Part shown: positions 39,087 to 47,411 of the stretch, piece by piece
How the letters are laid out: each line of letters starts with the position of its first letter
How positions within the stretch are numbered: the stretch's first letter is position 1
Source: Actinomycetota bacterium
GTDB taxonomy: Bacteria > Actinomycetota > Acidimicrobiia > Acidimicrobiales > Ilumatobacteraceae
NCBI GenBank assembly: GCA_016870215.1
Contig: VGCD01000001.1
Coordinates: 121,838-185,837, forward strand
Length of the DNA stretch: 64,000 bases
Direction of reading: 5' to 3'
Position numbers and translations under genes: made by a program
Notes under the pieces: generated by a model
What the model saw: the letters and a program-made list of their open reading frames with translations, nothing else
Database searches by the model: none
Told to the model about the DNA's origin: nothing

Positions 39087-39468
39087 TGGTGGAGCTGGGG
39101 GGAATCGAACCCCCGTCCATCAGGCGCTGAACGATCGTGATACGACTATCCCCGCATTAGTGCTGACGCAACACTGTCGGCGGGTCGACTATCCCTTGCG
39201 GGATCGCGTGTCGTCTTTCCGACATGTCAGCGTTCTTTCCAGCTGCCAGCGTTCTTTCCTGCCGTCATCCTTCGCTTCTGTTGCCGGGCTGCGATGGATT
39301 GGCCCCGTGCGCCATTGCTGGTCACGATGTCTCTCAGTCACCTGAATAAATCAGGCGGCGAGAGCGAACTGCTCGTTGGCAATTCTTGTTTGTGCCCCGT
39401 TTAACGAGTCTGAGCCACTCGAGTCGCACGCCCGCCCACCGAAACTGACGTCGAAACCAGGCAGCCCC
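39087..39468 (-). ncRNA. ssrA: transfer-messenger RNA (tmRNA)
   Basis: 382 nt. The 5' end (GGGGCTGCCTGGTTTCGAC, from 39468) and the 3' end (GGTTCGATTCCCCCC, then AGCTCCACCA, ending at 39087) form the alanine-tRNA-like acceptor and T arm, with CCA encoded. The tag frame reads GCA at 39395 through TGA at 39351-39353 and gives AQTRIANEQFALAA, ending in the ALAA degron recognised by proteases. With SmpB it rescues stalled ribosomes and tags the unfinished protein. smpB lies 83 bp upstream on the same strand, and a possible -10 box is at 39475-39480. Confidence 0.95.
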
Positions 39469-41600: not shown

Positions 41601-42431
41601 ATGACCGCCGATGTCGAACGCCCCATCGGCATGTTCGACTCTGGCTTTGGTGGACTGACGGTCGCAAGAGCAGTCATCGACCTGTTGCCCGCTGAAGACC
41701 TCGTCTACATCGGCGACACCGCTCGGTACCCCTACGGACCAAAACCCGTCGACGAAGTGCGACGCTACGCGCGTGAGATCGCCCAAAGTCTCGTTGAAGA
41801 CTTCAACGTGAAGGCCGTAGTTATTGCGTGCAACACCGCAGCGGCCGCCGCCTTTGATGATTTGTCGCGCGAACTCTCACTACCGGTGCTGAGCGTTGTG
41901 GAACCTGGAGTTAAGTCACTGTCGCTTGCCACGCGAAACGGTCACGTCGGAGTCATCGGCACCGTTGGCACCATCGGCTCGGGTGCGTACCAGCGCGCAC
42001 TTGCAGAACTCGACGCTGATGTTCAATTGACAGCCGCAGCGTGCCCAGGTTTTGTTGAATTTGTCGAACTCGGTCAGACCTCGGGCGATGAAGTGATGGT
42101 GTTGGCAGAGCGCCTCTTGGCCCCGGTACGTGATGCGGGGGTCGATGCGTTGCTGCTTGGTTGCACGCATTATCCGTATCTCTCTCGCGTTATTTCTGAA
42201 GTCATGGGCCCTGATGTCGTGCTCGTGAGTAGCGCTGACGAGACAGCATTTGAGCTTCGACGCATGTTGGGAGCTGCGCACTTGCGTCGAGGTCACACGC
42301 ATACGGGCCACCATGAGTTCTATTCCTCTGGCGATGTGGCATGGTTTGCAGACCTTGGTCGTCGTCTTCTTGGTCCAGAGTTGGAACAGGCGCAACACTG
42401 GCACGGAACTCACAGACACGGGAGCAACTAG
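41601..42431 (+). CDS. murI: glutamate racemase
   Basis: 276 aa from ATG 41601. Makes D-glutamate for peptidoglycan without a cofactor. The two catalytic cysteines lie in [13 protein letters not shown] and [10 protein letters not shown]; the N-terminal [14 protein letters not shown] and [11 protein letters not shown] are also typical. A GTG at 41559 would extend it by 14 residues. Only 2 bp separate its stop from the rph start. Confidence 0.96.
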
Positions 42432-42433
42432 CA

Positions 42434-43195
42434 ATGGCACGACCAGACGGACGATCACACGACGAACTTCGCCCAATCACCTTCGAGCGCGACTACACCG
42501 AGATGTCTGCAGGAAGCGTGCTCGTGTCGTTCGGGCGCACGCGTGTGCTGTGCACCGCTTCCGTCGATGAAGACGTGCCGCGTTGGATGAAGGGAAGCGG
42601 CAAGGGTTGGGTGACCGCTGAGTATTCGATGTTGCCCGGCTCGTCGCCAGAGCGCGTTGACCGCGAGGCAGCAAAAGGGAAGCAGAGTGGTCGCACCGTC
42701 GAGATTCAACGGCTCATTGGTCGTTCGTTGCGTGCGGCATGCGACATGAACATCTTGGGTGAGCGACAAGTGGTGGTCGATTGCGACGTGTTGCAAGCAG
42801 ATGGTGGAACTCGTACTGCAAGCATTTGCGGCGGCTTTCTTGCTTTGCACGACGCACTGACGCGCCTTGTTCAAAATGGATCAATAAAGAATCATCCACT
42901 GCATTCGCAGTGTGCAGCGATTTCGGTTGGAGTTCACTCTGGCACTCCGGTGCTTGATCTTCCATACATCGAGGACAGCAGTGCCGAAGTCGACATGAAT
43001 GTGGTGATGCTGCGTCCTCGAGACGGCGGAGAGGCGCGCTTCGTCGAAGTGCAGGGAACTGCCGAGGGGCTCGCGTTCACACGAGGAGAGCTTGACTCAT
43101 TGCTCGAATTGGCGAACGGCGGCCTCAATCGCATTTTTGATCTGCAATCTGAGTTGTTGTCGGTTGCTCCACCGCCACGACCCCTCGGACGCTGA
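42434..43195 (+). CDS. rph: ribonuclease PH
   Basis: 253 aa from ATG 42434 ([21 protein letters not shown]). Phosphorolytic 3'-5' exoribonuclease that trims tRNA 3' ends and rRNA. Motifs: [37 protein letters not shown], the RNA-binding [16 protein letters not shown] and [19 protein letters not shown]. The next gene, rdgB, starts about 20 bp downstream. Confidence 0.96.
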
Positions 43196-43214
43196 TTCGA
43201 AAACGGTGGCGGCG

Positions 43215-43793
43215 ATGATTGACATCGTCTGTGCGACGGCAAACGCACACAAGGTCACTGAAATGGAAACTCTGCTCGGCGGGTTGGTTCGGCTTCTGCC
43301 GCGCCCTGCAACTTTGGGTGAAGTCCACGAAACAAGCGACACGCTCGAAGGCAATGCATTGCTAAAGGCACGCGCGGTATGTGCACACACAGGTCGTGTC
43401 GCACTTGCCGACGACACCGGACTTGAAGTCAGCGCGCTCAGTGGGCGACCAGGTGTGCAAAGTGCTCGATATGCCGGAGTCGATGCCGATGATGCTCAGA
43501 ACAGGGCGAAGTTGCTGGCAGAGCTTGGTGAAGCAACGGTGCGCTCAGCTCGTTTTCGTACAGTGCTTGCACTTGTGCATCCGGATGGACGAGAACAACT
43601 GGTCGAAGGTGTCTGCGAAGGAGAAATTGCAACCAATCAGCGTGGCACGACTGGTTTTGGGTATGACAGCGTGTTCATCCCGAATGATGGCAACGGTGAG
43701 ACATTTGCTGAAATGGGTGCTGACGCAAAGAACGCAATCTCGCATCGAGCGCGTGCGATCAGTGCGTTGCGTGTGCTGTTGTCGACACCGTGA
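43215..43793 (+). CDS. rdgB: XTP/dITP pyrophosphatase (HAM1/RdgB)
   Basis: 192 aa from ATG 43215 (GTG 43206 possible). Removes non-canonical purine nucleotides from the pool. The motif TANAHKVTEM corresponds to the SxNxxK signature; ALADDTGLEVSALSGRPGVQSARYAG and GTTGFGYDSVFIP are diagnostic. Its end overlaps the convergent endonuclease-fold gene by 35 bp. Confidence 0.95.
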   Translation: MIDIVCATANAHKVTEMETLLGGLVRLLPRPATLGEVHETSDTLEGNALLKARAVCAHTGRVALADDTGLEVSALSGRPGVQSARYAGVDADDAQNRAKLLAELGEATVRSARFRTVLALVHPDGREQLVEGVCEGEIATNQRGTTGFGYDSVFIPNDGNGETFAEMGADAKNAISHRARAISALRVLLSTP

Positions 43794-44763: not shown

Positions 44764-45765
44764 TTACCAGCCGCGCAGGTCAATTGGCCATGTGTCAACG
44801 ACTGCGTCGTTCTCGACAACGTGAGCGACCGCGTGCATGGCCATCGTGGGGTCGATGTGTGCTGGTATCACGCGCACCCTGTCACCGATGGATGAACCTG
44901 TGCCTGAGAACGTGAGATGTTCGTCGGAGCAGAACCACACGGAGCCATCCGAGATTGAAGGATTACCGTGGTCCATGCCGAGAGCCTTGAGGCCGACATC
45001 GAGCACTTTCCATTGATCGTTCTCTGAAATCACAGTGCCGACCACCCACATTGCTTGTTCGAATGGCAGACCAAGGGTGGCGTACTGGGTATCCATCAAT
45101 GCGTAGCTTCCGGCCTGCACCTCGTTGACGCTCGTACCCTCGAACAAGTCATATGTTCCGGTGCCACCGGCAGAGATGATGTCACCGCCCACATCATGTG
45201 CAGCTTTCGCAAGGGTCGACATTGCTTCGCGCACTTGACGTCTCTTGTCGTCTCGATCAGCGACCATCATGAGGTGCCCTTCGTATCCCATCACACCCCG
45301 CACGTTCATTCCGCGTGTACGGGCCCGGTCAGCAAGGCGACCTGCGTCGGTTGGTGCGCATCCGCACCGTGGAAGTCCGACATTCACGTCGACGACAACA
45401 TTTTGAAGTCCGGCCGCAGCGGCCGCATCGATGGTTGCGTCTGAATCCACAGCCACTGTGATGCATGCCGAGTTCTGTGCTGCGGCAAGGGCTGAGAGTC
45501 GTGCGGTATCGAGTACTTCGTTTGCAAGCAACAAGTCATCGCCAACGCCGGCCCGCACCATGCCAAGAACTTCGTTCGGAGTGGCACACGTGAATGAATG
45601 GTGACCGGCGAGGTACTGCTCACGAGCCAATGAAGTGCATTTGTGCGCCTTCACATGTGGGCGAAGCCGCGAGCCAGGGTGGATCGTCGCCATAGTCTTG
45701 ATATTCCTGCGCAGCGCATCGCGATCGATGATGACGGCCGGGGTGGAGAGTTGCGAAATGTGCAC
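44764..45765 (-). CDS. D-threonine aldolase/D-serine dehydratase-like PLP enzyme
   Basis: 333 aa, GTG 45765. Fold-type III (alanine-racemase-like) barrel with PLP lysine in LRPHVKAHKCTSLA. The C-terminal beta-domain has the metal-site pattern RVRVIPAHIDPTMAMHAVAHVV of the DSD1 family, together with the SAGGTGTYDL and QAGSYALMDTQY blocks. It probably cleaves or dehydrates a D-hydroxy amino acid. The start codon lies only 2 nt after the discriminator base of the tRNA on the same strand, leaving no room for a separate promoter or ribosome binding site. Confidence 0.85.
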   Translation of the reverse strand: MHISQLSTPAVIIDRDALRRNIKTMATIHPGSRLRPHVKAHKCTSLAREQYLAGHHSFTCATPNEVLGMVRAGVGDDLLLANEVLDTARLSALAAAQNSACITVAVDSDATIDAAAAAGLQNVVVDVNVGLPRCGCAPTDAGRLADRARTRGMNVRGVMGYEGHLMMVADRDDKRRQVREAMSTLAKAAHDVGGDIISAGGTGTYDLFEGTSVNEVQAGSYALMDTQYATLGLPFEQAMWVVGTVISENDQWKVLDVGLKALGMDHGNPSISDGSVWFCSDEHLTFSGTGSSIGDRVRVIPAHIDPTMAMHAVAHVVENDAVVDTWPIDLRGW

Positions 45766-45767
45766 TG

Positions 45768-45841
45768 TGCCGGCGGAGGGACTCGAACCCCCAACACGCA
45801 GGACCTAAACCTGCTGCCTCTGCCAATTGGGCTACGCCGGC
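45768..45841 (-). tRNA. tRNA with UAG anticodon (Leu by anticodon), short variable loop
   Basis: 74 nt, no encoded CCA. The acceptor stem GCCGGCG/CGCCGGC has 7 perfect pairs. The D stem is GCC/GGC. The anticodon stem GCAGG/CCTGC closes the loop TTTAGGT, so positions 34-36 are UAG, which reads the leucine codon CUA. The T arm is GGGGG-TTCGAGT-CCCTC. The variable region is only five bases (GTGTT). Bacterial leucine tRNAs normally carry a long variable arm, so either this is an atypical class-I-shaped leucine tRNA or its charging identity differs from its anticodon. Confidence 0.85.
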
Positions 45842-45881: not shown

Positions 45882-47411
45882 GTGACAACGACAGCCACCC
45901 CCATCAGCCTCGACACCGATGTTCTTCGTACGCAACTCGGACTAGCCGACTGCGTGGTGGACGAATCGTCATTGATGAACAGCGTTCGTCGCTTCGCTGA
46001 GCAGAAGATCGTTCTTCCGACATTTTCTGAACTTGCCGACCCGTCGCGAATCGACGCACAACGAGTGGCCGGTGTTGACAAGAACGCGGCAGATCCCCGC
46101 AACCTGTTTCGCGTTCACTGGTACAACAACCTCGACGGTGACCGTGTGTCTGTTCCTGACCATGTTGTGCTCGGGCCGGAAGTAACAGGCGTCGAGAGCC
46201 CGATCATCGTGGTGTTCGGTGATCGTTTCCCGATGATCACGGCGCACAAGGTGCTTGCCGCGTATTCATGTTTTGCCCCGCGCGTCATCACTGGTCAGTT
46301 CGACCCCACTCGTCATCGTGCTGTGTGGCCTTCCACCGGCAACTATGCACGCGGCGGCATTGCCATCAGTCGACTGATGGGTTCGCGTGGTGTTGCTGTG
46401 CTTCCCGCTGGCATGTCTCAAGAGCGATTCGACTGGCTCGATCGTTGGGTCGCAGATCCGGCTGACATCGTTCGCACTCCTGGCACTGAGAGCAACGTCA
46501 AAGAGATCTATGACGCCTGCAATGAGATGGCCAAGGACCCGACGAACTTCATTTTGAATCAGTTCTGTGAGTTCGGAAACTATGTCGGCCACTACACGGT
46601 CACAGGTCGTGCGCTCGGGCATGTCTTCGAGACTGTGCGACGTGCGTCGGGTCGCGATCTTCGACTTGCAGCATTTACTTCGGCTACTGGGTCTGCCGGA
46701 ACTATTGCTGCCGGAGATCGCCTGAAAGATGACTTTGGCGCTCGCATCGTGTCGGTCGAAGCACTTGAGTGCCCGACAATGCTCGAAAACGGTTTCGGTG
46801 AGCACAACATCCAAGGAATCGGCGACAAACACATTCCTCTCATCCACAACGTGATGAACACCGACGTGGTGTGCGCGGTGTCTGATCGTGTCACCGATGA
46901 GCTCGACGTGTTGTTCAACACCGCGGTCGGCCAGAACTATCTCGCCGATCGCAAGGGTTTCTCCGCGGAACTCATCGACGCGTTGACGCATTTCGGGTTT
47001 TCCTCCATCTGCAATGTCACTGCGGCCATCAAGACTGCCAAGTTGCTTGGTCTCGGGCCAGACGATGCGCTCATCACCGTGGCCACCGACGGCAGTGCGT
47101 TGTACCCGAGCGAACGAGTCAAGACCCTGTCCCGTCGTTTCAATGATGATTTCACCGCACTTGATGCTGCAGAAGTGTTCAGCGAGCATTGGGGCAATGT
47201 CACCACCGACCACATGATTGAGTGCACTGAAGGCGACAAGAACCGAATCTTCAACCTTGGGTACTACACCTGGGTCGAGCAACAAGGAACTCCGCTGAAT
47301 GTGTTTGAAGCGCGCCGCAGCCAGTCATTCTGGCGATCTTTGCGTGACTACATGCCTGTGTGGGACGGACTCATCGGTGAGTTCAACGCCCGTGTCGCAG
47401 CTACGAAGTAG
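45882..47411 (+). CDS. fold-type II PLP-dependent enzyme (cysteine-synthase-like)
   Basis: 509 aa, GTG 45882. PLP features: Lys in [16 protein letters not shown], the substrate loop [14 protein letters not shown] and glycine loop [19 protein letters not shown]. It is longer than cysteine synthase, with added N- and C-terminal parts, and belongs to a little-studied group of 'PLP-dependent beta-family' proteins; the reaction is unknown. GAGGAG directly abuts the GTG, too close for normal use, so the start is uncertain. The following gene is a second fold-type II PLP enzyme, 24 bp away. Confidence 0.75.

What the first reader, a model, noticed from the sequence alone, without database searches (positions are those of the whole stretch)
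45768..45841. tRNA with leucine anticodon UAG but no long variable arm
All arms can be paired and the 7-nt anticodon loop puts UAG at 34-36, which decodes CUA. The variable loop has five bases, while bacterial tRNA-Leu is a class II tRNA with a long arm that LeuRS or the ribosome expects. Either leucine is charged on an unusual scaffold or CUA is read with another amino acid.
Basis: partly seen in the sequence, partly recalled or inferred. Interest (0 to 1): 0.6.

Follow-up and report, generated by a model that had tools for sequence, protein, structure and literature searches.

The report
Leucine tRNA without its long arm
A bacterium reads the leucine codon CUA with a leucine tRNA that lacks the long extra arm textbooks give every bacterial leucine tRNA; the same short-armed type is common in other actinobacteria and very common in phages, and still appears to insert ordinary leucine.

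Summary
A complete 74-nt tRNA lies at 45841-45768 (minus strand), with anticodon UAG and a 5-nt variable loop. It is the only CUA-reading tRNA found in its genome (2.0 Mb MAG, Ilumatobacteraceae, Acidimicrobiia). It is one member of a large, apparently undescribed family of short-arm tRNA-Leu. Within the window's family it replaces the class II tRNA-Leu(UAG) at the same locus: 36 of 37 genomes have it, and none of those 36 showed a class II UAG. Two single-contig relatives carry both UAG and CAA in short form. A nearly complete Actinomycetota genome carries UAG, CAA and UAA in short form.

Phages carry the same scaffold widely. When the anticodon was left free in the search, all 96 distinct phage tRNAs had leucine anticodons. 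All 329 tRNAs checked have A73, and 317 have U48. Together with A14, A15, G18G19 and A20a (partly fixed by the search), these are the elements E. coli LeuRS needs; it does not need the long arm. CUA codons fall on leucine-conserved columns (32 of 38). LeuRS is ordinary.

So 'leucine on an unusual scaffold' is supported and reassignment of CUA is not. Charging itself is unproven. No description was found in the searched literature.

The parts
45768..45841 (-). Short-arm tRNA-Leu(UAG), positions 1-73; CCA not encoded
   Evidence: conserved in all 31 genus-mates
45835..45841 (-). Acceptor stem, 5' strand GCCGGCG (pairs with 45769-45775)
   Evidence: all pairs kept, two of them with compensatory changes
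45816..45832 (-). D arm GCC-C-AATTGGCAGA-GGC: 3-bp stem, A14, A15, G18G19, A20a; C13 is the family signature
   Evidence: sequence
45798..45814 (-). Anticodon arm GCAGG-TTTAGGT-CCTGC
   Evidence: all five pairs show double changes across the family
45805..45807 (-). Anticodon UAG (reads CUA, and probably CUG by wobble)
45793..45797 (-). Variable loop GTGTT, 5 nt, ending in U48 (A15-U48 Levitt pair)
   Evidence: sequence; U48 in 317 of 329 relatives, position not fixed by the search
45776..45792 (-). T arm GGGGG-TTCGAGT-CCCTC
45768..45768 (-). Discriminator base A73
   Evidence: A in 329 of 329 relatives, position not fixed by the search
42341..43195 (+). rph (RNase PH), part of the conserved neighbourhood rph-rdgB-(DTA)-tRNA-Leu
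   Evidence: TIGR01966 340 bits; synteny
43092..43793 (+). rdgB/HAM1 nucleotide pyrophosphatase, conserved neighbour (true start probably inside this ORF)
   Evidence: PF01725 204 bits; synteny
44764..45765 (-). D-threonine/hydroxyaspartate aldolase-like PLP enzyme, immediately 3' of the tRNA; conserved neighbour of short-arm and class II tRNA-Leu(UAG) alike
   Evidence: PF01168 + PF14031; synteny
45882..47411 (+). PLP-dependent enzyme (PALP fold), divergent neighbour on the 5' side of the tRNA
   Evidence: PF00291

Best explanation
The tRNA is a functional leucine tRNA from which the long variable arm has been lost. The ordinary bacterial LeuRS of the cell charges it with leucine by reading A73 and the D-loop/hinge core (U8:A14, A15-U48, G18G19, A20a), not the arm, and it reads CUA (and probably CUG) as leucine. 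In the Ilumatobacteraceae and in several other actinobacterial lineages it has replaced the class II tRNA-Leu(UAG) at the ancestral locus next to rph-rdgB. The same scaffold with any leucine anticodon is common in phages. Shown here: structure, conservation, replacement, leucine-only anticodons, conserved identity elements, leucine at CUA positions. Inferred: the charging itself, its efficiency, and the wobble range.
For: Real, compensated cloverleaf. Sole CUA reader: the window genome has class II Leu CAA, UAA and GAG but no other UAG. Single-contig relatives G089 and G158 have class II Leu GAG, CAG and UAA but no class II UAG; nearly complete G429 has class II GAG and CAG only. Exclusive with class II UAG in 61 relatives. 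Same locus as class II UAG in relatives G048, G035 and G376. Anticodon left free in the pattern: 96 of 96 distinct phage tRNAs in the newly found loci have leucine anticodons (UAA 52, CAA 17, UAG 12, CAG 6, GAG 5, AAG 4). Unfixed positions: A73 329/329, U8 329/329, U48 317/329. CUA on leucine columns 32/38 and CUG 152/171, the same rate as CUC 179/206. Ordinary LeuRS genes in all 61 genomes, of the same kinds in short-arm and class II genomes. E. coli LeuRS determinants are those retained, and the long arm is dispensable (PMC9976931). Human mitochondrial tRNA-Leu(UUR) is charged without a long arm (same source).
Against: No aminoacylation, expression or peptide data. The identity rules are from E. 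coli, not Acidimicrobiia. D-loop elements A14, A15, G18G19 and A20a were fixed by the search patterns in the wide survey, so their conservation is informative only in the homology-selected family set, and the free-anticodon result is conditional on them too. Codon columns come from three proteins.
Confidence: 0.9

Rival explanations
1. CUA is reassigned: the short-arm tRNA is charged with another amino acid, as with yeast mitochondrial tRNA-Thr(UAG).
For: A class I tRNA with a UAG anticodon replaces tRNA-Leu(UAG) in yeast mitochondria (PMC7609411).
Against: CUA falls on leucine columns in 32 of 38 positions. The scaffold occurs only with leucine anticodons in phages and also carries CAA and UAA in bacteria, so the whole leucine box would have to be reassigned. 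There is no G3:U70 (Ala) pair. A published screen of over 250,000 genomes reports five new codes, which its discussion treats as arginine-codon changes (PMC8629427; CUA is not mentioned in the text).
Confidence: 0.03
2. Leucine is the main product but the short-arm tRNA is partly mischarged, so CUA/CUG decoding is ambiguous.
For: Not testable with consensus columns; 6 of 38 CUA columns are not leucine.
Against: The non-leucine fraction at CUA (16%) matches that at CUC (13%) and TTG (13.5%), which other tRNAs read.
Confidence: 0.05
3. The tRNA is a decayed or accessory gene, and a class II tRNA-Leu(UAG) is missing from the assembly.
For: The window genome is a 55-contig MAG, 91.8% complete.
Against: Two single-contig genomes and one nearly complete genome lack class II UAG. 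No class II UAG was found in any of the 36 short-arm genomes. Structure is maintained by compensatory change. CUA codons are in use (54 in the window).
Confidence: 0.02

Closest known systems
Bacterial class II tRNA-Leu (e.g. E. coli tRNA-Leu; class II UAG of neighbouring Acidimicrobiia)
   Same: Leucine anticodon, A73, U8:A14, A15-U48, G18G19, A20a, 3-bp D stem with a non-Watson-Crick 13-22 position; same genomic locus in relatives.
   Different: Variable region of 4-5 nt instead of a long stem-loop; 12-23 is C-G rather than G-C; C13 instead of purine; usually A9 instead of G9.
Animal mitochondrial tRNA-Leu (UUR/CUN)
   Same: Short variable loop and leucine charging through A73 and A14 (PMC9976931).
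   Different: Organellar; here a full GC-rich cloverleaf in free-living bacteria and phages.
Phage-encoded tRNA-Leu of mycobacteriophages (Bxz1 group) and Gordonia phage GodonK
   Same: Same short-arm type, annotated tRNA-Leu with CAG, GAG, CAA and UAG anticodons.
   Different: Extra tRNAs on a virus; in the window's lineage the tRNA is the sole reader of a codon in the cell.
Nematode nev-tRNAs
   Same: Class of variable arm and anticodon disagree (PMC4033280, PMC4300185).
   Different: The reverse case: leucine-type long arm with a non-leucine anticodon.
Yeast mitochondrial tRNA-Thr(UAG)
   Same: Class I tRNA with UAG anticodon in place of tRNA-Leu(UAG).
   Different: 8-nt anticodon loop and threonine; here a 7-nt loop and leucine columns.

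Membership tests
tRNA-Leu (leucine-accepting) | Anticodon reads a leucine codon | tested here: met
   UAG at 34-36
tRNA-Leu (leucine-accepting) | Bacterial LeuRS determinants A73, U8:A14, A15-U48, G18G19, A20a | tested here: met
   Present in the window tRNA; A73 329/329 and U48 317/329 in relatives; rules from PMC9976931
tRNA-Leu (leucine-accepting) | Leucine is inserted at the codon | tested here: met
   By conservation only: CUA on leucine columns 32/38
tRNA-Leu (leucine-accepting) | Aminoacylated by LeuRS | not testable with these tools
   Needs an in vitro or acid-gel assay
Class II tRNA | Variable region of 10 or more nt forming an arm | tested here: not met
   5 nt
Codon-reassigned tRNA (CUA not Leu) | Codon falls on columns conserved for another residue | tested here: not met
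Phage-borne short-arm tRNA-Leu | D arm GCCC-AA..GG-AGA-GGC, short variable loop, A73 | tested here: met
Phage-borne short-arm tRNA-Leu | Common descent with the phage genes | tested here: inconclusive
   Shared signature across phyla, but the tRNA sits at the ancestral bacterial locus; a 74-nt gene gives too little signal for a tree, none was built

The most novel reading that the evidence does not exclude
The short-arm tRNA-Leu is a single, mobile gene family that phages carry and that has repeatedly displaced the native class II tRNA-Leu genes of bacteria (UAG, CAA and UAA in turn), perhaps because the armless form escapes tRNA-cutting defences or toxins that recognise the normal leucine tRNAs.
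Probability: 0.25. Interest if true: 0.8.

Novelty: new variant of a known kind. Interest (0 to 1): 0.62.

Why it matters
Reviews and annotation tools treat the long variable arm as a fixed mark of cytosolic leucine tRNAs, and one review lists no such exception for bacteria (PMC4033280). Here whole bacterial lineages and many phages do without it, in one genome for three of five leucine tRNAs. This is a natural counterpart of the laboratory result that E. coli LeuRS does not need the arm. It gives a direct test of what the arm is for: SerRS exclusion, ribosome fit, stability, or vulnerability to nucleases. It also warns that tools using arm length to assign identity will misjudge these genes.

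Tried and rejected
The hypothesis that the tRNA derives from tRNA-Gln(UUG), the nearest other tRNA by BLAST in the genome (78%), was rejected: acceptor stem, A73, D loop with A20a, anticodon arm and locus all match tRNA-Leu(UAG). A dedicated second LeuRS was looked for and not seen in the window's genus; LeuRS sequence type does not follow tRNA type, since G035 and G048 (class II UAG) have the same kind of LeuRS hit as the window's genus. First neighbour clustering was muddied by antisense ORFs and was redone with real proteins. A lack of tRNA-Leu(CAG) in the window genome is probably an assembly gap: the gene lies at contig ends in genus-mates G021 and G013. The class II pattern demands GCGTCT in the D arm and misses class II UAG genes in some lineages (many genomes, including most of g93 and f84, matched neither form), so exclusivity is claimed only for the window's family, for G089, G158 and G429, and largely for f90. 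Nine literature searches found no paper describing short-arm bacterial tRNA-Leu; subscription papers and preprints are not held, so this is weak evidence of novelty.

Full report
WHAT IS THERE. The minus strand at 45841-45768 encodes a complete tRNA: GCCGGCG TA GCC C AATTGGCAGA GGC A GCAGG TTTAGGT CCTGC GTGTT GGGGG TTCGAGT CCCTC CGCCGGC A. The anticodon is UAG and the variable loop has five bases. ARAGORN and the Rfam tRNA model agree. The loop is in phase. In 14 distinct sequences of the same family all 20 stem pairs are kept in every sequence, with 47 double changes against 17.7 expected from shuffling.

THE GENOME. The window lies in a 2.0-Mb, 55-contig draft, 91.8% complete. Contig lengths of genus-mates G011 and G031 equal those of public records L086 (Ilumatobacteraceae bacterium) and L073 (Actinomycetota bacterium), so the genus is placed in the Ilumatobacteraceae, Acidimicrobiia; that is an inference. 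Typing its tRNAs gives class II Leu CAA, UAA and GAG, and this short UAG as the only CUA reader. A class II Leu(CAG) was not found here, but it exists in genus-mates, twice close to contig ends, so it is probably lost in assembly.

IT REPLACES THE NORMAL GENE. Of 37 genomes of the window's family, 36 carry the short-arm UAG tRNA and the exception, G035, carries a class II UAG. None of the 36 has a class II UAG by pattern; their pattern hits are CAG genes. Genomes of other families in the order have class II UAG or no hit. In two single-contig relatives (G089, G158) and one nearly complete Actinomycetota genome (G429) all long tRNAs were fetched and typed: class II Leu GAG, CAG and UAA in the first two, GAG and CAG in the third, and no class II UAG. 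Their missing leucine tRNAs are short: UAG and CAA in G089 and G158; UAG, CAA and UAA in G429. In f84 (probably Nocardioidaceae) it is scattered.

SAME PLACE ON THE CHROMOSOME. The tRNA is next to genes for a D-threonine-aldolase-like enzyme and a PLP enzyme, with rdgB and rph a little further. In G048, G035 and G376 the class II tRNA-Leu(UAG) sits at the same distance from the same aldolase and rdgB genes, and the short form in several Nocardioides and Pseudonocardiales also lies near rph-rdgB. The short tRNA is therefore the positional counterpart of the class II gene. Whether the arm was lost on the spot or the gene was converted from a donor is open.

PHAGES. With the anticodon left free, the 96 distinct, well-paired tRNAs of the newly fetched loci read UAA 52, CAA 17, UAG 12, CAG 6, GAG 5 and AAG 4: leucine anticodons only. 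A scaffold that served several amino acids would not do this. The result is conditional on the D-arm and T-arm letters in the pattern.

HOW IT WORKS. E. coli LeuRS needs A73, the A15-U48 pair, G18G19 and A20a, and not the anticodon or the long arm; minimal tRNA-Leu without the arm is still charged; U8:A14 matters for the Aquifex enzyme (PMC9976931). The window tRNA has all of these. In 329 tRNAs of the wider family the unfixed positions give A73 in all, U8 in all and U48 in 317. All 61 genomes encode ordinary LeuRS-family genes, of the same kind in short-arm and class II genomes. The likely mechanism is plain: the resident LeuRS charges the short tRNA with leucine through these elements. SerRS needs a long arm and G73 (PMC7609411, PMC9976931), so losing the arm should, if anything, reduce confusion with serine.

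WHAT CUA MEANS. LeuRS, RpoB and UvrA from short-arm genomes were aligned with those of other relatives, with CTA and CTG in the short-arm rows masked. CUA fell on leucine columns at 32 of 38 distinct positions, CUG at 152 of 171, CUC at 179 of 206, TTG at 173 of 200. CUA is a used codon: 54 in the window, 2.9% of leucine codons. Reassignment is not supported.

SIGNATURE. Compared with class II tRNA-Leu the family has C12-G23 for G-C, C13 for a purine, and mostly A9 for G9. Two short tRNAs of G429 change the D stem but keep C13, which suggests that C13 belongs to the compensation for the lost arm; that is inference. A few short-arm UAG tRNAs keep the class II D arm (L103, L111, L133), so arm loss has probably happened more than once.

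NOVELTY AND LIMITS. Nine full-text searches found no account of bacterial tRNA-Leu without the long arm; passages on tRNA-Leu in the review of non-canonical tRNAs do not mention it. Phage annotators have evidently named such genes without comment. Leucine charging is inferred, not shown. The tRNA is best filed as tRNA-Leu, a new structural variant, not as a class II tRNA and not as a recoding tRNA.

Noticed in passing
window 39087-39468 (-): tmRNA gene with tag peptide ANEQFALAA, a standard one-piece tmRNA.
   Followed up: no
L607, L608, L617, L619: Other leucine isoacceptors are short-armed too: CAA in G089 and G158, CAA and UAA in G429.
   Followed up: partly
L103, L111, L133: Short-arm UAG tRNAs that keep the class II D arm (GCGR..GACGC) in other bacteria, including Chryseobacterium and a Flavobacteriaceae MAG: probable independent arm losses.
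   Followed up: no
L059 101-160 (G000:C13:128-187): Incomplete, degenerate copy of tRNA-Gly(CCC) near a contig start; possibly the scar of an integrated element.
   Followed up: no
G569 (family f90): Only genome seen with both a short-arm and a class II tRNA-Leu(UAG).
   Followed up: no
L491 2997-3340: Mycobacteriophage ET08 carries three leucine tRNAs of class I length (74-76 nt; CAG, GAG, CAA) close together.
   Followed up: no
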